From: Tribonema minus
Lineage: Eukaryota > Sar > Xanthophyceae > Tribonematales > Tribonemataceae
Assembly (NCBI GenBank): GCA_017506865.1
Contig: JAFCMP010000097.1
Span: 124,001-188,000 of the forward strand
Length of the DNA: 64,000 nt
Direction: 5' to 3'
Shown here: positions 26,049 through 39,500 of the stretch, piece after piece
Layout of the letters: every line of letters starts with the position of its first letter
Position numbering within the stretch: position 1 is the stretch's first letter
Program-made: the position numbers and the translations under genes
The notes under the pieces: generated by a model
The model's input: only the letters and a program-made list of their open reading frames with translations
Told to the model about the DNA's origin: nothing
The model's database searches: none

Positions 26049-29000
26049 TCAGTCGCCTTGTCTCAATTCCAGCTTGCGCCTGTGCTCTGCAGCCTTGAGC
26101 TCAAACACTCGCTCCATGAGGCGCTTTGTGAGTCTGTGTTCGCCGCCGCTGCCAAAGACAGCATTTTGCAGGCTGAGGAGCAGCTTGGAGATCTCACGCC
26201 CTGAGAAGCCCTCTACTTGCTTGGTGAAGGAGCATACCTGGTCCTCACCAATGCCTGGGGCACAATTCCAGCCGCAGAGAGCACATTGAGCCTTGGAGAG
26301 ATTGAAAGCGTACAGCGAGACAGATCAACGACAGTACCAACATACCCCATGTCTCACAGCAGGTCAGAGCAGGAATTGCAAACAAGGCTGTGCAAATTTT
26401 GTGAGCATGCTCCAGTTATGGTGCCAATGACCATGCTGCTTGGCCATCGCACATCGTTCAGGCCACGGCAAACGCCACAATTGCTGCCTTGCTGTCAGCC
26501 TTGCAGACTAATCTGGTGTTTGGTGAAGCAGTGCATCTACTCAGGAGCGTCAACATGTACTTATCCACGATATTCTCTACTTCAATTCATCTGAACTGAA
26601 CACTCAAAGCACTTCTACATCAATGTGCTTACGCTCTAAAGAAGCTAGTAAACTGCACAACATTGACGCTATGAAGATTGCAGTGGGTAGACCGACTGCA
26701 GTGGTCTACCCTGTCCCAGCACAACGCAATTGTTATTGCCTTGACCATTTCAGGCACCTACACGTAGCTTCCATAATGAGCGCTTGCAGGAGACAAGCCT
26801 GGTAGCCAGTGTCCACGTTTTGCATGGTGGCAATAGATGAGCATTATGTACCACTAGGACCCTACCCCTAACCCTAACCTCAAAGCAACTTCAATTGTGC
26901 CACATTATTCCCCGGACTATATGCGTCAAAATGGCTTGGTAAATAGTGTGCGCTTACGCTACAGCTGCACCAGTGCGGCCTGGCAACACTGGGCGTAATG
27001 CTGCTCATAAATGCGCAACAATTGCTGTATGACAGCCTCTTCACACCTGCACCGGCCTGAGCATGGCATTACACTGACAACTCTCTGGGGATGAACTTTC
27101 GGCCAGTTTATGAGCATTTTACCCAGGCAATCAATTGCAGACATCATGTCACGCTCGCCGATCCTTCACCTGCATCCACGGTGATGCGGCCTGCACAGCC
27201 CCCTCCCCAGCGCACCAGCCACCGCAGCCCCTGCCGTTCACCGTCATCAGGGCTTGCCACGAGGGATGCTATGTATGAGCGGAAGTATAGGGCAAGCAGC
27301 TGGCGACGTGCTTCGACGTCCGGCAGCGGGAACAGCAGGGAGTCATCCTGGGCGCAACAGCGGGATGCAAGCAGGCAACGTTAGTATCGCATGCAGCAAT
27401 CCGACGACAACCGGTATCTGTTGCAGCAGTGAGGCTGGTAGCAACAGTTTACATCCTGTGAAGCATGCAATGCGCTGTTGTCGTGTGTTTCAGACTGAAA
27501 TGGTATCAATTATTGGTCTGAGCTGGCAAGAGAGCGGAACTGCAGTGTTCTGACAATCATGGCGTGTTCTGATGATCATGACGAAGCTGCACGTAGATGG
27601 GCCTGCTGTATCGCTCAATCTGCAAATGCAGTGGGGGCTACCTGGTTGCACATATGCTTTGAAGTGCGTGTATATCACTGCACAGCATACCTTCCTCATG
27701 AGGTATGTGCAGGCTACAGGTGCAGTGCACACAGGACCTGCTCGTGTGGCACATCCAATCTTGGCATATACAGCTGCGGCAACATGCACAGACCTTGTTG
27801 AGAAATGTTCAAGTATCAAGAAAGCAGACTCTGCTGGCAGTAGTGTCTCAATGATGCGAAATCTGATCTAAAAGGCCAACAGTGCCTCAACACCTGTCCT
27901 GGCATTCAAAAGTTCAACTGTGCCGCTCACCATGCGGTCCAGAACTGCCTCATCCAGGTCTTCTGCGCGGTTGGTGGCCAACACTAGCATGAAGCTGTGA
28001 CTGGCAGTGCCCGTCTGGTACAGGAGCGCATTGAGCGCATTGCGGGTGTCCTCCGATAGCGTCGATGCTGCACGACAGCCAAGCCAGAAAAGCATGGAGA
28101 TGCACACACTGGAGCGGTGACAGGATTGCAGCTGCTGCTACCGTGCTACAAATTGCTCCGCAGTTGCACCAGTGATAGAGACAACATGACCACCAATGCA
28201 TGACAGCAGACCTTGCAGAGAGCTAGCTCCACACAATGACTTCTCACTGACATGACCACTGTGTATAGACAGAGGAGAAACTGTAATTCGCCCAACACAC
28301 ATTTCATTCCAAGAACAATGACATTGCGGCCTCTTCACAGTGAGCTACTTAGCATGTACATTCTGTACAATTGTCAAGATAGCTCTTGACTCACATGATC
28401 GGCTGCCCAGGAATGCCTCTGCCTCATCGATGAACAGAAGGACACCGCGCTTGGAGCGCCTGGCCCAAGCAAACAGGCTGTGGAGCTCTGTGACCGCGTC
28501 CTGCATGCACAGGGTGCAGCACATCAGCCCGAAAGTAAAATTCGAACCTACCAGACATCGCCTGTTGGCATACTTTAAAAAGAAATCATCATGCAGTTCT
28601 TGAGCGCAACTGTCAATAAAAGTCTTGCTCTCAGATAACTGCATTGAAACAAACACATCAGATGATGGCGGCAAGCGCTTGCTGCTGATGCGGTCGACCA
28701 GGGCAGTGTGCATGAGTAGTCTAGTCTTCTCCGGTTGAGTGAGTGATTGTTGCACTGACCTTGCCCAGTGGCCCCACATCGCCGCCACTCATTATGGCGT
28801 AGTCCATGCCAGAGCACGCCGCAAGGCGCTTGGCCACCATGGTCTGCACGCGTCAGTCACACAAATGATGGCAACCGTCAAGGAGAGCACAGTGAGCAAT
28901 TGCACTTGGAGGTATACAATTGCGGCACCATGCTTTCGATTGGGCATCATGCCCATTGGTGTCAGCGTCCAGAACCAACTCATGTGTGTGCATTCGGACA

Positions 29001-32000
29001 CAACAAAGGGTTGCTAATGTTAAGGCTTGCCAATGCTCCACAGTTTGCAGCACTCTTCAGTTGCAGTGCTGCAGATGGTAAGCGAACTGGACGTGCACTT
29101 GTGCGGTGTCCAGGCAGGAAAGAGGCAGGTAATTTGCGTGTGTAGGTAGGTAGCTTGAGGCGCTGTTTCCTAATGATGTCAACAAGTCGAAGAAAATGAA
29201 GTTATTATGTAAGTCGAAGAAAATGAAGTTATTACGACACAGGTTTCCTTTTGTAACATTACGACCGTCGCGGACCCGGGATGGAGTGGAACCTGGGCAG
29301 CTGGAGCTAGAGAAAGGAGGCTTACCCTCTAGCGCGGCGAAGCTAGGGGGTCAGACAAGACTCCTGACCCGCGCTCCGCCTGCTATGCTACTGCTCGTAG
29401 GTGAGGAAAAGGAGAAAGCTACGGATAGCTTGTGCTAAACAACCTGGAGCCTTCGTGTCGCCGCACGAGGATCAAAACCCTCTCTCCACCTTCTGGTGCA
29501 CTACGCGCATTCAAGAGCTGTCAGCAGCTGATGAACATCCTGTGTTGTGGGCTACCAGCTGGAGCTGGCCTACCGAACACGTGTTACGTATTCCTCTGAA
29601 CACCCATGCCGCAAACGCTACAGGTTGCACACATAAGTCTCTTTGACTACTGTGGATATGGTGGCACTGTTTGACTCGTGGCCAATGACTGCAGCAGCGA
29701 CCACGGTTATTGGTGGAAGGCACTTGCTGCTTACCACTCCTCATCACCTAGAGCTCGACGCTCTTTGGATTGTTTCCATGAATGGTAAGTTTTTAGTGCA
29801 CCGATGTTCCGGCATGGCGCTCAGAGCTTCTGAAAATCAATCTTACAGGGTATCCTTGCCAAGCGCACCTCAGCTGCATTACCTGCTGATGCTTGGAATC
29901 CAAGTGCCCCATGAGGAAGCTACCCTTCATGCAGATACGTCACAGAGAAGTACTCGAAGTATTCTTACTCCAGCCTGTCAGAATTTTCAAAAAGTTCTGA
30001 TTGACTGGTCGTTGAAGACCACTTACCTTGCCAGTACCAGGAGGTCCATAGAGCAGCAAATGCCGGAATGGCGCCCTGTTCTTGCGGGCATTCCTTGTAG
30101 CTGTCGCCAGGGACAGCACTTGCTCCTGAAAGCAGCATCAGACCAAGATGGAGACCGTCATCACATGCGAGACGCATGTGGTGGAGAGTTGCGAAATGGA
30201 AGATGCAAATGTGTCGCGGATGGTACAAGCCCCATGCAATGCTATCTGGCATAGCTGAAAGCACGCGACATCATTTGCACATGTCACATGTTGTCAGTAT
30301 GTAGACTCTCCGATCCTTAACATTTACTGGTGTGAACGCATTCCAACTGCCTGCGTGTGAGTCAAATGTGACTGTGCAAGCATTACACGCCCACAAGCTG
30401 CAATGATTGATTGTAGCTGTAGCAGTTACATATGTCATGGTACGCCAAAACATCAGAAGCCCACAGCAAGTCCCATGCTGCCCTGGATCAAGGAACATGA
30501 AAGGCTGCAGATGGCCTGAGACAAAAAGGTATGCGCCCAGGCTGATGCCCCCTTCCCCCAGCTCAACAGCTCTGGGAGGCATTGTCACCAGGTTCATGTC
30601 TGTCAAAGCACATCGCGTGAACATTGTTTGTGTCAAACCAATTGTGCAAAGGCTGACCCACCCCCCACCCCATGTGTGGCTTGGCGTGGATGCTGTCAGC
30701 GCCAGATGACCGTCAAGCTGAAAGGCAGCAAACAACATAGAATTGGCGCATTGGGGATCGTGATGGTATATGGATTCAAACGTTGAGCTGTCAGGCTTGC
30801 CTGTAGTACTGGCGGCAGCACCACATCCTCAAAGTAGCCGGCAATATGCGTGCGGGCCTGTGTGCACACAGAAAACCACAACAGACAGTCATGAGTAATG
30901 TCCCATGCACTTCCCACACAGGCTGCATCTGTTACAGGGCACTTCACACGCACAATCAAGCTGATCAAAACATGCATGGGATGCATACGACTTGTGTTGT
31001 ACTTCTACGATCCTACAGCGTCAAGCACAACTTTCATTGAGTGCCAGTCCTCAAACAACCAAGCATAGAGGCCTGAGCGGCATGATGAATTTCGCCACTT
31101 TCTGCACCACTCATGGGCAATGCAATGGCCAGTGTGGAGTTTTCAAGAGCATAACGCATGCATTCAATTCAACATCACCTTGGCAGCATCCTCTGACTTC
31201 CTGTGCCAGCCACGCGACGTTTCTCGTACAAGGGAGGGCCGGCCCAGCCTTGCAGATATGACACGCCCACACAGACCTATGGCCTCCCTGCATAATATAA
31301 GATTCGCTGCGAATAAGATTTGCCACCACATTTTCGTGCTCATGCGCAAAGGAGCATGCACAGCATGTGTGACACAAGTGTTCAAGTGGTCTGGTAATTC
31401 AGGTGCCATGATTGAGCGAGTCAGCAAAGCATGCACGTAGCGGAAAACAGGAGTGTACAGGAGTGTGAGCTGTGCTGTGGTCTGACTGGAGGAAACCGTG
31501 CGCTGAGTCCAGTATTCGGTGGACGCCAGTCCCCCAATACACAAGGTTGTATGAGCATGCGGGTTTCGTGGGGGTTTCACTCACAGATTATATCGACGCA
31601 CATGTTGGAGAGTGCGACAAGCATATAGACACAGAAATACTGACAAATGCCTGCCCGCTGCAGGGCCGAGAGTGCGGCGATCCTGCCACCTGCATGCCAC
31701 ATACAGGTACTTGCTAATGCATGTGTTGCTGAAAGAGAAATTACTGTGAGCCACACCGCAATTAGCTACTTCAAGTATGTGTCAGCCATTTCTGCGCCGA
31801 TGACTTGCTGATGCCACCAGTGTGAGCTTGCATCACGCTGTGATTCAAAGATACTTCGAAGCATTCGAATGGACTAGCATCATGTACCTGAGGATGAAGT
31901 ACCCTGCAGCAAGTCCGAGCAGCCATGCTGCCACTGCAGCTGCCTTCATTGGGTCCGACAAGAGCACCACTACGCCAGTGGCCAAGTGCTCAAACACGGT

Positions 32001-35000
32001 GCGAACAGCCTCCAGCACACGTTTTCTGTCCTCCTCAGCCTGCACAAGTGCAGTGGAGAGACGCAGCTGAGTACATTGGCACAGCAGGTGGCCTAAACTG
32101 ATGCCGCAGTAAAAGTAATTGCACGGTGATCAGTTCAACGTATGCCACAAAAAATATGTGACATCAGGGGGGGGGGCTGCCCACCAGTGATATCCCAGAG
32201 AATGCAGCAGAAAGATGGCAGTAGTGAAGATGGCAATAGTGCACCCGCAACGAAGTTGTTACTGACAGACGCATGGTGCAGGTCACAGTGACTGTAGAGC
32301 ACCCTCGGCGCATTGGACAAGGCTGTGGCATACTGATGACGGCACCGTGTTGGTGCCCAACTGTCGTGACTGCGTCCCTAATATCTGCTACAGCATAGCA
32401 CTTTGAGCGTATACATTATGAAAGTGTATGTTTGCCACAGCACGCACATGAGCTGCTGCATGTTTGTGGAGCGGAACTTTGCAGCCAGCCGTACCTTGGC
32501 CTTGAGCTTCCTGAGCTCGATGTCCTCATTTGCCCGCTCTGCCTCTGCCTTGGCTGCCACTTCCGCCTTGACCAGCTCAAGTTCAATTGCCAGACGCTCC
32601 GCTTCCAGCTCGCGTGCTTGGTCTACACGTGCCTGCGCAATACATGAAATGCCAACAGTCAAATGCGGAAAGTCAGCACGATGAACACTGTGCAGGGCGC
32701 AACCTTATTATGTAGGTATGCTCATGATGCCTCTCAATGTACATTGTCAGTACAGCAAGGGAGTGCGGGACACACAATTGCTCAGCCTTCCAGATGCATG
32801 CATACACCAGGCAGATGTACTTGAGCCAACAAGCAAGGGCAGGCCGTTTCAGCCAACACATCCTCATGAGCTGCAGGTCCTCCTCCTTCAGTGCCTTGGG
32901 GGCTGGCATGGGCGCAATGTACCCAAAGTACATCTACAATGGCAATGGTGGGCGAGCGCAATGCCCAAATGCTGCCCGTTGCAATATTACTCCGTTTCAG
33001 CTGTGGTGGTAACTGCACGCAGTTTGGTCAGGGCGGTCATGAGATGATCGCTCAGCCATTTGACCTGTTGCAGCGCTTCCTCAGTCTCCAGCCTGAGTGC
33101 CTCCCTACGTGCCACGCTCTCCTCCTGCATGAGACATGAAACATAGTATGCACGGCATACAATGCGCGGTCAATGGAGTGCTACCTCATTCTCTCCGTTC
33201 CTGCCATGAAGCATAGCTGACCACTTTCTTGTCCAGTACAGTAGATCATTCAGAGTTTGCTGGTATTCTTGCACACAAGGTCACGCTCATGTAACAGCCT
33301 GGCGTGACTTTGCGCACTTTGAACATTTTCAGTTCAAGCTAGTGTCAAATAGCATGGGCTTGCATGTCACTTGGAGGCACGACACACACGAGATAGCAAC
33401 GTGTTTTGTGGAATGAAGATCAGCAAGGCATGCAGCAGATGGCAACTCACAGAGCAGGTAGCTGCCACACATGCCCAACATTTGCTAAACGTGCTCCGCA
33501 TCACAATCACACACAAATCATAGCACAAAACGTGGCCAAACAGTTCCCATTGCCAATGATACATGGCATTAAAGTACGATGGCAAAACTGCAATGGGCCG
33601 GGTTTACGCCACCACATGTCACCAATGCTGGAATCGCTATCACTCATTTTTGAAGTACATGGCCTAAGAAAATCACAGTTTGCGGTGCTCGATGCATTAT
33701 TCAAAGTGGAATTTAGTGAGACGACTGCCGCCTATGTGTCCACTGTGTGTCAGTGCTCACCTGTAAGCGCAGCTGCTCAGCAGCACGCATAGCATCCGCA
33801 TTTGCGTCCTCCTCTACCTTGAGCCGGTTCATCTGCATGGGCAAATAAATATGCGATGGCATTATTTGAGCTTGCAGCGACGGGAGAGCAGCGCACAAAT
33901 TAGCACAGTAGCATTGAGTTGAGGGGTGCGTCTGACCAGGGTACCTACTGAAGCTTTGATACTTCACAAGCATACATACATCGACATGCGCTTGATTGGG
34001 CGTGGTCAACAGTGCCATTAGCCACCATACTGCCTGACCCCAGCCTGTCAAGTCAGGACGAATGCTGAACTATGTTACGCTCGACATGCAGACAGTGTAC
34101 AAATAGTTTTTTGGCAGCATTTTTGCAGTTACCCCATTTGTTGAAAAGAAGACAGGGAACACAAGCATAACATTGCATACCTGATCCAAGTGATCGAGTG
34201 CCAGCCTCTGCGCCTTAGCTTCTTCCTCTATCCGCACGCGTTGCTCCTCAAATTGCACCTGCAGCATGCGCATGCACGAGCACACAATCATGCATCCCCG
34301 ACGCATGTGAAGAGCTTTATCAAGTAGAAGTTCAGTCAGATGATGCCTCAGTTCATGAATTTCATCAGTGTTGACTGTCCTCTGAAGCCCTGGCACCCAT
34401 GTTGAGCCAGCGTACTCATGCTCTTGAAATTTGCAGGAGGATTATAGCGCACTACATGCTTGAAACTGCATACGCGTCTGGTTGCTTGCATATGCATATG
34501 GAATGCACCTTGCTGACTCAGCCAGGTCGGCGACAGTGGCCACAAATTGTACAGTACACTCATACTTGTACACTACTTAAAAGTACGAGGCACTTTGGTC
34601 ATGCGGCCGTTCTGACCTCAAAGTCTTGCAGTGCTTACGACTACATACAGCTCCCCTCTCACAATGGAATGGCAGTCCTTAACAAACGATGTGACTGTCA
34701 GCGCTCAAAATTGAAAGGAAACTGTCAGTCAAATGAATGAACATCCATTACCCGTGCCAGCTCTGCCTCCAGCCTGACCCTAGCCGCCTCAGCCTCCCTG
34801 ATGCGATTCCGTTCCAACAGCTGGGCATCTGCTTCCTGCATGGCAGGAGCCACATATCAACATGATGATGCACACATCCAGAAAAGGGAGATGTCACATA
34901 TTGACAGAGTCGCGAGGTTTGCAGCGAAAAGATGTCAGCAGTTTGACTTTTGAAATGCTCTGGAACCCTGATATCCGCACACTGGCTATTACAAAATGTG

Positions 35001-36448
35001 ACAGCATGGAGGTGCCAGTCGCGCTCGCAGGTGATAGGTGATCAAAGCAGACTTTAGTGGGCATGCGACATAGGGTATATGGCGAGGATCACAGCAATGC
35101 CATTGTTGGCATCTGTCACAAACATGGCCTACTGTGCTGCACTGCTGCTTCTGTGCAAAGAGCAACACTGTGCGGCTCACTCAAGATCAGGCTGTGGGTC
35201 TTGCTGAGGTAGAGTCACGGCATTGTCTGTCCACCATAAACCAAATGAGGTGTGCACAGATGCTGCCACATGCTTTGGCAGAGCATTACACACCAATGCA
35301 GAAGCCTGCGCCCTGCACAAAGTACCCTTGCCTGCACCGTGTGAAGTCACATATCCTTGCTACATGTCCGCACCAGTTGATTAGTGCAAGAGGTACTACA
35401 GAGATAGAAAGTAGTACTTGCCTGTGCCATGCGGCGCTGTATCTGCTCCACCAGCTCGTCCATCTTCTCATCCTTGTCACTCAGCCGGGTGACTCGCTGA
35501 GCAATATCGCTCTGCCGCACTATCAGCTCCTGAACGGCGCCCACATTGTGCATGAACAGCACATTCCTGTGGAGGTGCGAGGGCACATATTACGCTCCAG
35601 TCAAGTGGCTGTTTGTCATGATTGCCCTACAAAAGTGGCTACCATCAGGACTTCCAATGCCCTGCTTGCCTTGCCTAGCTGAATTATGATTGTGTGCTCT
35701 AGGACCATTTCAGCTGTGCACCTTTCTCCAATACCTACAAACACATCGAGTGTCATAGGTCACTTGCCTGTCAACAACTGCCAAGTTCTCTACCGTGATG
35801 GGTGGCTCGCCTTTGACGGGATTGGCAACGCTGCTCCGATGCTTGATCTCCACGCTCTCCGGCAGTATGTCCTGTACGCAAGGTCACGATGGATCAGTGC
35901 AGAGGGTTCACCACAACCACAAGTGTTTAAACATGCTGGTGTGTCTTCTTGGTACAACTTGAAGGCCAACATGAAACACACAACGCCGAAGTTTAGCATC
36001 TTTTGAACCGTGGTTGATTGGAGTGAAAATTTCACCACATTTTAAAAGCTGACCTGTAGCTGGTGGCCCAGGACACCGAGCTGCCGCCTGCCCACCACAG
36101 TGTCGTACTTGTACTCGTAGATCTGCAGGGGCAGCTGAGATACCTGCGCAATGCAAAGGTTTGGGAGTACTTCAACACCGTGCAACGTTCCGAACAGGCA
36201 GCATGCAGGCAGCCGAGATTATTGGTTGGCGGCATGTGAATTGAAATAGATTTTCAGCCAATTCCACTGAGTGTTGCACGCACCTTATGCAGACAATCCG
36301 CTGTGTTTGCGGGCATCGCATTAATGTAAAGATCCCTGTCATTGCTGGTCACTAGGACTTGTGCTGCTCGCACCAAAGTTGCGGTGATCGTTGCTGCCGC
36401 TGTCAGCTGTCTCCAGCAGCATCGATGGAAGATGCAACAAGGCCTCAT
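26049..36448 (-). CDS. ATAD3: ATAD3 AAA+ ATPase with N-terminal S74/ICA-like domain
   Basis: ATAD3 spans the inner mitochondrial membrane and organises nucleoids and contact sites. Exons join in phase from 36448-36284 through 36143-36054, 35871-35768, 35566-35422, 34835-34752, 34258-34181, 33832-33761, 33124-33065, 32632-32495, 32039-31888, 31287-31179, 30857-30801, 30125-30027, 28843-28760, 28500-28395, 28067-27931 and 27347-27170. The last exon, from about 26237 to TGA 26049, has an unresolved phase to its predecessor. The order is: Arg-rich amphipathic leader (MRPCCIFHRCCWRQL); S74/ICA-like domain (about residues 34-150); coiled coil with EESVARREALRLETEEAL; membrane segment AAAVAAWLLGLAAGYFIL; ISARLGRPSLVRETSR; Walker A YGPPGTGK; AIMSGGDVGPLGK; Walker B LLFIDEAEAFL; sensor LVLATNRAEDLDEAVLDR; C-terminal VEGFSGREISKLL. 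Total is about 680 residues, against about 630 in plants. Three introns use GC donors. The ATAD3 identity is firm. The fusion rests on splice phase and on the leader lying before the S74 part. Confidence 0.85.
26860..26879. repeat. Short telomere-like CCCTAA tract
   Basis: CCCTACCCCTAACCCTAACC lies in an ATAD3 intron upstream of the last exon. It matches the CCCTAA (TTAGGG) telomere unit rather than the CCCTAAA unit of land plants. It is too short to be a telomere; a repair scar or chance is possible. Confidence 0.6.
29184..29233. repeat. Tandem duplication, 27-bp period
   Basis: AAGTCGAAGAAAATGAAGTT occurs at 29184 and 29211 in the ATAD3 intron between exons 28843 and 30027. It directly precedes a 240-bp block (29260-29500) of different texture, rich in CTAG and AGCTAGG. 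Confidence 0.9.
29539..29779 (+). repeat. Dispersed repeat, copy 1 (partner at 55342-55591)
   Basis: About 240 bp in an ATAD3 intron. It aligns along its length with the reverse strand of 55342-55591. Shared landmarks in order are CTGGAGCTGGCCTACCGAAC, TGAACACCCATGCC, GCGACCACGGTTATT, TCACCTAGAGCTC and GTTTCCAT. Both copies can be read as related peptides (AAATTVI core), so the family may derive from coding sequence, but neither copy is an intact gene. Confidence 0.85.
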
Positions 36449-36577
36449 TGCTCCCACTCACCCACCACCAAACGATCCAAACTGGGAAACCTCAACGGTT
36501 CCCTTCCAAAAGTGGAGTGTCAACTTTGAGCTTCGCAAATCGAAAGCCAGGTGTGTGTTTCATCTGCCCCTGCAGCC
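36449..36577. promoter_or_regulatory. Compact divergent promoter, ATAD3 and ARP4
   Basis: Only about 130 bp separate the two start codons, so the two genes must share or overlap their promoters and 5' leaders unless undetected 5' exons exist. The assignment follows from geometry. I see no clear TATA box. Confidence 0.5.
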
Positions 36578-39500
36578 ATGTATTCTGCTGGCGATAACAT
36601 CGGCGCTGTGGTTGGGGACATTGGATCCGTTTGCTCCAAAATAGGCTTTGCGGGAGAGGATTTTCCAAGGTGTGTATCCTGTTCAAGTTTTGCTGATGGC
36701 ATGGTGATGTCGGATGCAGACGCTGACACTGTGTGATGCATTAGTACGGTGAAGTCTCTTAAGGAATTTGAGCGATCGCTGAGGCATTGGTGCTTGAAAC
36801 TGATGAACTTGCAAGATTTGTTGTGCGTTGCATTTTGTTTCACGGTGCCATATCATGTCTCATGCCTGCAGAGCGTATCTCAGCAGCTTCGTGGGTTTGA
36901 CCGTGAACAAGGATGCAGGCTCACCAGCAGGCGAGGACATGGATGTTGAAGGGCAGCCGCAGGTGAGGGGATGATTGCTTGACTATGAATACGTCACATG
37001 AACAGCTATGCGTTCTTGACAGCATCAGCTACACCGTTGTGCACCTTGAAGACCAGCTGGTGACTCCGCTGAAGGGGTTGCAACAACCACCTGTCCACTG
37101 CCACTACAGCTGCTGCCTCTCATTACTTGCCTGCAATTTTCTTGCCTCCATCAATTTGCAAACCTGATGTGGTGAGCTGTTGAAGGGACTTGTTGTTCTC
37201 AAACTCTGGACCAGAATCAGTACGGCCTGCGTTCGCCTTGCCAACTCTACGTGTGTGTGTCCCCGCACACGTGCATGTGTGTGTGTGTGTGTGTGTTTGG
37301 CTGGGACTTCTTCCAGATTGTGTAGGGCGTGTTACCTCTGACCTGATGTCAACAATGCATGCAGGTGTACCAATATCATGTGGATGCACAATGGGAGCGG
37401 ACAGACATGGAGTTACGCAGCGCGGTGGGCAAGGCAGGTGCCGTGCAGGACTGGGATATGGTGGAAAAGATATGGGAACATGCTGCAGTAAATAAGGTGA
37501 GCGATCATGCATGTTCAGTGAAGCTACAGGTAATGATGTGCATTTTCTGACTTCAATTGGTGCTTTGAGCACGGTACTACTTCAGAAGTACCTTATCACG
37601 CACTGGACAAGTATAGACATACATTGATGTGGTGAGGCCGTGGGCAAATGCACATGAGCACACAGTCCAACCATTGCATTATGTCTGCCCAGCTACGACA
37701 ACAGCTGCTGGGGTGCCCTGGTTGTCCTGTACGCTCAGCTGCGTCCAGAGTCAACAGATGCGATTGAACACATAGGTACATGGGCAGTATTTCTCGATTG
37801 CATCACGGGCGGCGTTGCGCTTACGGTCAGTGCCAGAGGCTGCAAGTGAGCGGAGGGGATTTTTTTTTTGGAAGGAACCACTCTCACATTGAAGTATACT
37901 GGAAATTATCTTGCAAGTAACTTCCATAACACCGTAAAACACTGTCACTTCCATAACACTGAAGAGTGTGATTGCTGTCAGGCACACAAGTGATTTTGCA
38001 TGTAGGGGTTATCTTACCCCAAACGCGGCAGCCTTGCAGAAAGCGATGTAGAGCAAGGCAGGCAGTGGAGGGCTGCCCAAACCTGCAACTTCATGTCAGG
38101 GCGAAGGTACTCGCTAGGTTGGGGGAGTTTGCATCGTGCTGAAAAATCGGTGAATGTGATGACTTCCTGAAATTCTGGGGAAGCACAAGAAGGGGTGGTG
38201 CAGCCTGCCATGGTGTGTAGCGTTACATGCAATGGTGAGGTTTCAACGATGAGAAACTTGGTGCTGTGAAGCAGTCTGGGCTTGATGGTGTTGGCGACGG
38301 CGGCACGAGAGGCAGCAGGGAATGGCGTGTCCTATCTGCATCACCCCGGCGGTTGCGCATTCGATGTTGTTGACAATGGTTTTGTATTGGAAATTGGTGG
38401 CTGCATTTGCGTGGTGGTGCTGCTGTGTTGAGGCAAGGAGCTTTTCCTTTCAATCACAATGCTTGCACTCAATATGCTGGTTGACCATGCAAAGCGCCCA
38501 TCATCACAGCTGATGTATTGAGACAATGTTTGTGCCGCTTGCTGTGTGTAACAGTTGCGCGCGGACCTAAGCGAAACTCCCATACTGCTGTGTGAGAAGA
38601 GCAACGCCATGGCAGCGACACGCGTCAAGTATACGGTACGTGACACGTGATGCCCAGGCTGCAAATGCTGGCCTGATAACCAGAGAAGAGCGCCCATAGC
38701 TGCGAACGGGACAACGGGCCATGGCATGTCGTCTAATCTAGCACCAAAGTGGCTCAGGCCTTCACCTGCACCAGGTCGATGCAGCTCGCGTGTTGTGCAA
38801 GGCTGGAGCGAGAGCCGCTGCTGAATCGCCACTGTTGTCAGACTCCTGGTAAATGAGATGCTAGCATGGCATTTTATCTAGCATGCTTTACTTTTACGTC
38901 TGGCAGTTGCAATGCCTCTTCTCAGTCTCCCGCTGCACCTGCAATAATCACTGCTGTGCTATGCACTCACCCATGTCCTAATCTTGTTGTACAGGAGCTC
39001 ATGTTTGAGAAGTTTGATGTACCGGCGCTCTTCATGGGGAGAGATGCGGTGCTTAGCTGCTTCTCGCTTGGCAAGACAACGGGCACTGCGGTTGATGTTG
39101 GTGGCCACACAACAGTTACACCAGTAACTGATGGATGGTGAGTGGCCGCCTCCCTGAGGTGCCGGAACTGTGTGACGGCTCCCATTTGACTGTGTGCTCA
39201 TCATATGGCAAATGCACACTGGCCTCATTACCATATGTTGACTAGGATGCTGTCAACAGTGCCTACAACTTCTGTGCATCAACTTTCGCCATTGACCGTT
39301 GTCATAAGGGTGCAGCGCATCTCAACATGGCTGGCCTTGGTGTTGACCTGATGCAACCCAATTTACCGCATGTTTTACATGCACCAGCTTGTATAAGTGT
39401 GTCCCACTAAGTCGATACTCATAACATGGCCCACTCTGTTTCTGATGCAGGGTCGATCACCGTGCCATAGTGACCGCATCGCTGGGGGCAACGGCACTCC

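What the first reader, a model, noticed from the sequence alone, without database searches (positions are those of the whole stretch)
26049..36448. S74/ICA (MYRF-type) domain fused to the N-terminus of ATAD3
The first four exons encode YEYKYD..RRQLGVLGHQLQDILPESV..ITVENLAVVD..VLFMHNVGAVQELI, the core pattern of the S74 intramolecular chaperone domain known from phage tail proteins and MYRF. They join in phase to the ATAD3 coiled coil, membrane helix and AAA domain. An Arg-rich mitochondrial-type leader precedes the S74 part, and I find no start codon for ATAD3 between the two parts except inside the coiled coil. S74/ICA domains trimerise and AAA proteins are hexamers, so the domain could template assembly. 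I know of no described ATAD3 with this domain.
Basis: partly seen in the sequence, partly recalled or inferred. Interest (0 to 1): 0.88.

Follow-up and report, generated by a model that had tools for sequence, protein, structure and literature searches.

The report
Secretory-type ATAD3 with phage chaperone domain
A yellow-green alga has a membrane ATPase, related to a mitochondrial protein, that carries a phage-type trimer-forming domain at its front end; relatives in brown algae, diatoms, water moulds and dinoflagellates have the same build, and most look directed to the secretory pathway rather than to mitochondria.

Summary
The fusion is real. The window is from Tribonema minus, a stramenopile, not a green alga. 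One minus-strand gene of 18 exons (36448-26049) encodes 687 aa: leader, S74/ICA domain, coiled coil, membrane helix, ATAD3-type AAA domain. The S74 part scores 110 bits against a profile of distant relatives; no shuffle of 1000 exceeds 7.8. The nearest solved structure is the MYRF ICA domain. The same architecture occurs in brown algae, Chrysoparadoxa, oomycetes, chrysophytes, centric diatoms, bolidophytes and a Noctiluca-type group. Tribonema has two further ATAD3 loci with ordinary N-termini. The mitochondrial leader is not supported: most relatives' leaders look like signal peptides, and N-glycosylation sequons are enriched before but not after the membrane helix, so the S74 part probably faces the ER lumen; Tribonema's own leader is weaker evidence. 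The self-cleavage Ser/Lys pair is complete in 1 of 164 proteins scored, not in Tribonema. Best reading: an uncleaved ICA cap trimerises the lumenal coiled coil of a secretory-pathway ATAD3 paralogue; cargo unknown.

The parts
36284..36448 (-). exon 1: start codon, moderately hydrophobic leader (residues 1-35) and start of the S74/ICA domain (alpha1, ...LYINAMPANTADCLHK)
   Evidence: splice model; homology of the LYxNxxxANTxDCL segment to P0001 and others; start codon inferred
36054..36143 (-). exon 2: S74/ICA core (YEYKYDTVVGRRQLGVLGHQLQ)
35768..35871 (-). exon 3: S74/ICA core (DILPESV...ENLAVVD); GC donor
35422..35566 (-). exon 4: end of ICA and its C-terminal helix (FMHNVGAVQEL...), running into the coiled coil; GC donor; the public model P0003 starts here
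   Evidence: helix seen in models of relatives
34752..34835 (-). exon 5: ATAD3-type coiled coil
   Evidence: ATAD3_N 167-384
34181..34258 (-). exon 6: coiled coil (missing from the public model)
33761..33832 (-). exon 7: coiled coil (missing from the public model)
33065..33124 (-). exon 8: coiled coil (missing from the public model)
32495..32632 (-). exon 9: coiled coil
31888..32039 (-). exon 10: end of coiled coil and membrane helix (about residues 335-362)
31179..31287 (-). exon 11: post-membrane segment ARLGRPSLVRETS
30801..30857 (-). exon 12: linker to AAA (missing from the public model); GC donor
30027..30125 (-). exon 13: AAA domain with Walker A GPPGTGKT (its last residue in exon 14)
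28760..28843 (-). exon 14: AAA domain (SGGDV)
28395..28500 (-). exon 15: AAA domain with Walker B LLFIDEAEA
27931..28067 (-). exon 16: AAA domain with sensor 1 LATN
27170..27347 (-). exon 17: AAA domain and following part
26049..26254 (-). exon 18: C-terminal part (lid region) and stop codon
36578..37496 (+). divergent neighbour: two exons (36578-36669 and 37365-37496) of an actin-related gene, with introns and possibly other exons between; 129 bp lie between the two start codons, so a further upstream coding part of the S74-ATAD3 gene is unlikely (exons nested in the other gene are not excluded)
   Evidence: Pfam Actin on both exon pieces (29.0 bits, over the cut-off of 27, and 19.2 bits, under it); naming it ARP4 is recalled

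Best explanation
The gene encodes a paralogue of ATAD3 in which the usual soluble N-terminus has been replaced by a leader and a catalytically dead S74/ICA domain. Inferred mode of action: the leader sends the protein into the ER; the ICA domain and the coiled coil lie in the lumen, one membrane helix crosses, and the AAA ATPase works in the cytosol. The ICA trimerises through its C-terminal helix, which runs without a break into the ATAD3 coiled coil. Having lost the Ser/Lys dyad, it cannot cut itself off (as the phage and MYRF domains do) and stays as a permanent trimer cap, so that two lumenal trimers may stand on one cytosolic AAA hexamer and pass ATP-driven movement to lumenal coiled coils or their cargo. 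Shown here: fusion, conservation, domain order, loss of the dyad by alignment, predicted fold of relatives. Inferred: ER location, trimer, hexamer, coupling, cargo.
Confidence: 0.7

Rival explanations
1. Mitochondrial reading: the protein is an ordinary inner-membrane ATAD3 whose N-terminal half, now with an ICA domain, lies in the intermembrane space; the leader is a mitochondrial presequence.
For: Ordinary ATAD3 is a mitochondrial protein (recalled). Tribonema's leader has four Arg, no acidic residue before residue 37 and only moderate hydrophobicity.
Against: Most relatives' leaders (116 of 140) hold a strongly hydrophobic stretch of signal-peptide type, and sequons are enriched only before the membrane helix. 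Tribonema already has two ATAD3 loci of ordinary type.
Confidence: 0.13
2. Active ICA: the domain cuts itself N-terminally, as in phage tailspikes and MYRF, releasing the leader or a short peptide.
For: The dinoflagellate-type P0201 keeps Ser and Lys in register.
Against: 163 of 164 scored proteins lack one or both residues, Tribonema among them; in 140 of 162 with a complete N-terminus only 15-80 residues lie upstream, so there is little to release.
Confidence: 0.05
3. Two neighbouring genes, an S74 fragment and an ATAD3 gene, joined only by my splice model.
For: The public model starts in exon 4 (P0003); an in-frame ATG stands at 34841; the donor of exon 4 is GC.
Against: The same junction is found in proteins of many lineages and in transcript-labelled entries; GC donors with the same AG|GCAAG context follow exons 3 and 12 of the same gene.
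Confidence: 0.02
4. Flagellar-hair reading (an extension of the best explanation, not exclusive with it): the protein helps to assemble or hand over the tubular flagellar hairs (mastigonemes), which stramenopiles build in the ER (recalled); the ICA cap was recruited for fibrous cargo, as in phage tails.
For: The named hits belong to groups with flagellate stages (recalled), including zoospore-forming oomycetes. Of 19 rows with an organism name, 9 are diatoms (two truncated names resolved), all of genera that I recall as centric and none pennate; only centrics have flagella (PMC3202595, abstract and passages).
Against: No expression or location data.
Confidence: 0.2

Closest known systems
ATAD3 (ATAD3A/B; Pfam ATAD3_N PF12037 plus AAA PF00004)
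   Same: Coiled coil, membrane helix, G[KR]PxLVRETS segment and AAA domain match (126.7 and 91.3 bits).
   Different: The ordinary N-terminus (seen as GGGGFDPTGLERAAKAARALDAS in Tribonema C412) is replaced by a leader and an ICA domain; leaders and sequons of relatives point to the secretory pathway and not to mitochondria.
MYRF (myelin regulatory factor) ICA domain, PDB 7dc3
   Same: Nearest solved structure by sequence and, for a relative's model, by fold; FMxNVGAVxEL start of the trimerising helix; membrane helix after the ICA.
   Different: No DNA-binding domain upstream and little room for one; Ser/Lys dyad lost; opposite predicted topology (MYRF is a type II ER protein, abstract of PMC6117317 in the listing); followed by an AAA motor.
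Phage tail-fibre and endosialidase S74/ICA domains (PF13884; PHROG 1980)
   Same: Same domain family; S74-named or ICA-named phage and algal-virus proteins among the BFVD fold matches (all E>=0.1).
   Different: N-terminal instead of C-terminal; not self-cleaving by sequence; fused to a eukaryotic AAA ATPase.

Membership tests
ATAD3 | ATAD3_N profile match over coiled coil and membrane segment | tested here: met
   126.7 bits, cut-off 25
ATAD3 | AAA domain with Walker A, Walker B and sensor 1 | tested here: met
   GPPGTGKT 445, LLFIDEAEA 500, LATN 544; PF00004 91.3 bits
ATAD3 | ordinary soluble N-terminus (GFDPT... type) | tested here: not met
   present in open frames at Tribonema C412 and C528, absent here; replaced by leader and S74. 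Filed as an ATAD3 paralogue of a different subtype
ATAD3 | mitochondrial inner-membrane location | not testable with these tools
   indirect evidence points away from it
ATAD3 | hexameric AAA ring | not testable with these tools
   no oligomer prediction available
S74/ICA domain family | profile match above curated cut-off | tested here: met
   23.9 bits against 22 on the N-terminal 168 aa; 21.8 on the whole protein, just under; 28 of 64 relatives at E<=0.01
S74/ICA domain family | ICA fold with C-terminal helix | tested here: met
S74/ICA domain family | Ser-Lys catalytic dyad and self-cleavage | tested here: not met
   N36 and Y41 at the Ser and Lys places in Tribonema; both residues present in 1 of 164; cleavage itself not tested. 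It is a homologue, by sequence not a working self-cleaving peptidase
S74/ICA domain family | homotrimer | not testable with these tools
   no multimer prediction
MYRF | DNA-binding domain upstream of the ICA | tested here: not met
   an actin-family gene starts 130 bp upstream on the other strand; no NDT80_PhoG match in the genome, but that search had no positive control
MYRF | MYRF_ICA profile above cut-off | tested here: inconclusive
   19.3 bits against 24.1 for the N-terminal piece, 17.4 for the whole protein; 20 of 64 relatives at E<=0.01

The most novel reading that the evidence does not exclude
Stramenopiles and dinoflagellates have an ancient second kind of ATAD3 that works in the ER membrane and not in mitochondria: a cytosolic AAA motor joined through one membrane helix to a lumenal coiled coil that is trimerised by a captured, cleavage-dead phage-type chaperone domain, and used to assemble or export fibrous cargo such as flagellar hairs.
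Probability: 0.2. Interest if true: 0.9.

Novelty: new variant of a known kind. Interest (0 to 1): 0.7.

Why it matters
ATAD3 is studied as a mitochondrial protein, and its mechanism and the function of its coiled coil are open (recalled). A large, apparently old subfamily with a defined trimer-type domain at the coiled-coil tip, apparently facing another compartment, gives a handle on how the coiled coil and the AAA ring relate (3-fold against 6-fold), shows a further eukaryotic use of the phage ICA domain besides MYRF, and gives a candidate for a stramenopile-wide secretory function. It also shows that automatic gene models can drop the domain.

Tried and rejected
Two-gene explanation: rejected on conservation. 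MYRF gene truncated at the front: judged unlikely, since an actin-family gene starts 130 bp upstream on the other strand. Viral copies: one viral-contig scan with the fusion profile gave 124 pattern matches and no relative by tblastn; BFVD fold search gave S74-like hits with E>=0.1 only. Search of the Tribonema genome with PF13884 found four other S74 places but not this gene, whose domain is split over exons; NDT80 gave none, without a positive control; MYRF_ICA gave none. The N-terminal 168 aa as query found no second S74-ATAD3 gene in the genome: besides the window's own exons only weak matches on C25, C529 and C47, E 0.017-0.66. Trees: one search dropped 7 rows that lacked the trimming motif (P0010, P0045, P0195, P0197, P0198, P0201, P0203); one search took these in on the AAA part, with a smaller pick of the others (36 rows against 43). 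P0202, whose N-terminus is cut, was labelled fused in both although it has no S74 match of its own. The unexplained P0192 (875 aa, no S74 match by the family profile) was left out of both trees. PITG_19005 (Phytophthora member) appears in no paper of the library and not in the main text of the flagellar-gene-loss paper PMC3471859 (passages searched). PMC12221091 passages gave no link. PDB search of the AAA part showed only other AAA ATPases, no ATAD3, among the best 60 of 236. No PDB hit for a 44-aa piece of the neighbouring actin-family gene. The translation of L002 was on the wrong strand and gave nothing.
Full report
WHAT IS THERE. The window lies in G000:C97:124001-188000. On the minus strand 18 coding exons, all junctions in phase, run from an ATG at 36448 to a stop ending at 26049 and give 687 aa. 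Acceptors are AG throughout; donors are GT except for GC after exons 3, 4 and 12, each in an AG|GCAAG context. A divergent actin-family gene starts at 36578 on the plus strand, so the S74 part is most likely the front end of this gene. Pfam gives ATAD3_N at 167-384 (126.7 bits) and AAA at 441-568 (91.3 bits); Walker A, Walker B and sensor 1 motifs are intact.

THE S74 PART. On the N-terminal 168 aa Peptidase_S74 scores 23.9 bits (cut-off 22); on the whole protein 21.8, just below; MYRF_ICA stays below its cut-off. PHROG tail-fibre profiles match, best E 6e-10, and the MYRF ICA chain 7dc3 at E 6e-7. A profile built from 16 relatives (5 oomycetes, 4 diatoms/bolidophytes, 7 chrysophyte-side proteins, of which 2 are named), without Tribonema's own group, gives 110.1 bits; of 1000 shuffles of the same 168 residues 671 were reported, the highest at 7.8. 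The N-terminal piece of the ordinary Tribonema ATAD3 at C412, tested beside it, was not reported.

THE FUSION IS CONSERVED. A search with residues 30-170 found 3 proteins of 184 candidates: Chrysoparadoxa australica (53% identity; ATAD3_N and AAA follow), an unnamed protein P0002, and the truncated public Tribonema model. A three-sequence profile gave 549 hits at E<=1e-20 among 7998 scored candidates, best 120 listed: brown algae (Ectocarpus, Scytosiphon, Hapterophycus, Ascophyllum), oomycetes (Phytophthora, Pythium, Saprolegnia, Aphanomyces, Albugo and others), chrysophytes (Spumella, Ochromonas), diatoms (Thalassiosira, Leptocylindrus), and many without names. An S74 profile iterated on this set matches 120 of 122 proteins including Tribonema in the first round and 119 in later rounds; the misses P0003, P0103 and P0120 start inside or after the domain. 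The profile was built on the same set, and the search profile itself contained the S74 part, so Pfam is the independent check: of 64 of the 121 proteins then in hand, 64 have ATAD3_N, 63 AAA, 28 Peptidase_S74 and 20 MYRF_ICA at E<=0.01. A diatom profile (279 hits at E<=1e-20, best 120 listed) added more diatoms, Bolidomonas, Triparma and a Noctiluca-type group; 188 of 204 proteins in hand then carry the domain. Of the 16 misses, P0194 looks ordinary, P0192 is unexplained, and the others begin in or after the domain, mostly in the coiled coil. In the Noctiluca-type group P0198 and P0201 pass the Peptidase_S74 cut-off, P0203 is at 21.9 bits, just under, and P0197 (the only one with a name) is seen only by the family's own profile. 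P0015 and P0019 carry MMETSP transcript labels marked complete. P0002 reads from the S74 part to Walker A in one frame and then seems to run into an intron.

PARALOGUES AND TREE. Tribonema has two other ATAD3 loci, C528 and C412; open frames there show ordinary N-termini (GGGFDPTALEDAVALMNEM..., GGGGFDPTGLERAAKAARALDAS...). In a 43-row tree the fused genes are one side of a branch against three ordinary ones (SH-aLRT 88) and Tribonema groups with Chrysoparadoxa and the brown algae (98). In a 36-row AAA-only tree the same split has 68/69, while oomycetes (100/100), diatoms plus bolidophytes (100/99), the Noctiluca-type group (100/100) and the Tribonema-brown algal group (98/97) are firm. So the fused gene follows organism groups and looks old; a single origin is favoured, not proved. 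P0194 was taken as ordinary by its sequence only, and P0202 as fused by its place only.

CLEAVAGE. MYRF uses S587/K592 and trimerises through its C-terminal helix alpha4 (PMC8326128, abstract and passages). At the matching places Tribonema has N36 and Y41. Of 164 proteins with this end covered, the Lys site is Y in 114, L 28, F 10, I 7, K 4, H 1; Ser and Lys together occur in 1 (P0201). The alignment at the Ser site assumes no gap and is less sure; Tribonema has a Ser one place further (S35).

TOPOLOGY. 162 proteins have a Met start and a covered domain start; 14 with leaders under 15 aa and 8 with leaders over 80 aa were set aside. Of the other 140 (Tribonema included), 116 have a 10-residue stretch of mean Kyte-Doolittle >=2.0 and 124 no D/E in the first 12; only 69 beat 95% of shuffles of their own letters. 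Tribonema's leader reaches 1.76, the ordinary C412 N-terminus 0.78. In 147 of 188 proteins with all landmarks, N-x-S/T sequons number 132 in the S74 part (58.4 in shuffles), 80 in the coiled coil (51.3) and 207 after the membrane helix (216.2); 111 of 147 have one in the first 16 residues of the domain. Tribonema has none. These sequences are related and the counts not independent, but the contrast across the membrane helix within the same proteins argues for a lumenal front half. In the brown algal proteins P0004-P0007 the domain follows the hydrophobic stretch almost directly, which leaves little room for a plastid transit peptide, and oomycetes have no plastid (recalled).

HOW IT MAY WORK. 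Best-supported reading: a non-cleaving ICA cap trimerises the lumenal coiled coil of an ER-membrane ATAD3 paralogue with a cytosolic AAA motor. The cargo is unknown. A lead: of 19 rows with an organism name, 9 are diatoms, all of genera I recall as centric (names completed), which have flagellate sperm, and none pennate, which lack flagella (PMC3202595, abstract and passages). Stramenopile flagellar hairs are made in the ER (recalled). PMC3471859 (title and abstract start in the listing; passages) deals with flagellar gene loss in a downy mildew and names three mastigoneme genes; this protein's PITG number does not occur in its main text.

IN PRINT. Full-text searches for ATAD3 with stramenopile, S74, Phytophthora, mastigoneme, or signal peptide plus algae, for PITG_19005, and for Peptidase S74 with Phytophthora found no description (listings only, in an open-licence library). 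UniRef names one member 'Peptidase S74 domain-containing', so the pairing is visible in databases.

Noticed in passing
L003 (G000:C529:657612-660800): An S74 domain (SDQRIKNRVEDVDVDDLL...) lies inside a 10,598-aa open frame; glycine/serine/threonine-rich fibre-like sequence continues on both sides of the domain in the 1063 residues read.
   Followed up: partly
L001 (G000:C190:224979-228158): A frame with tandem GGLSSAGGLTVTTGG-type repeats is followed by an S74 domain with the SDRRLKENI motif, i.e. Ser and Lys kept (read by eye); L002 on C71 has a similar S74 score.
   Followed up: no
P0201: A dinoflagellate-type S74-ATAD3 keeps Ser and Lys in register (YFSDYQLKDNI), so it may still self-cleave.
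   Followed up: partly
window 36449-36577: Only 129 bp separate the start codons of the S74-ATAD3 gene and a divergent actin-family gene: possibly a compact bidirectional promoter.
   Followed up: partly
P0003 against window 26049-36448: The public Tribonema gene model starts in exon 4 and lacks exons 1-3, 6-8 and 12.
   Followed up: yes
P0097: The Thraustotheca clavata member has a further N-terminal part with PF13640 in front of the S74 domain; gene fusion or a mis-joined model.
   Followed up: no
P0127: An entry labelled Alexandrium tamarense is 76% identical to the Thalassiosira protein, probably a diatom contaminant.
   Followed up: no
P0192: An 875-aa ATAD3_N-AAA protein with a long, different N-terminus and no S74 match by the family profile.
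   Followed up: no
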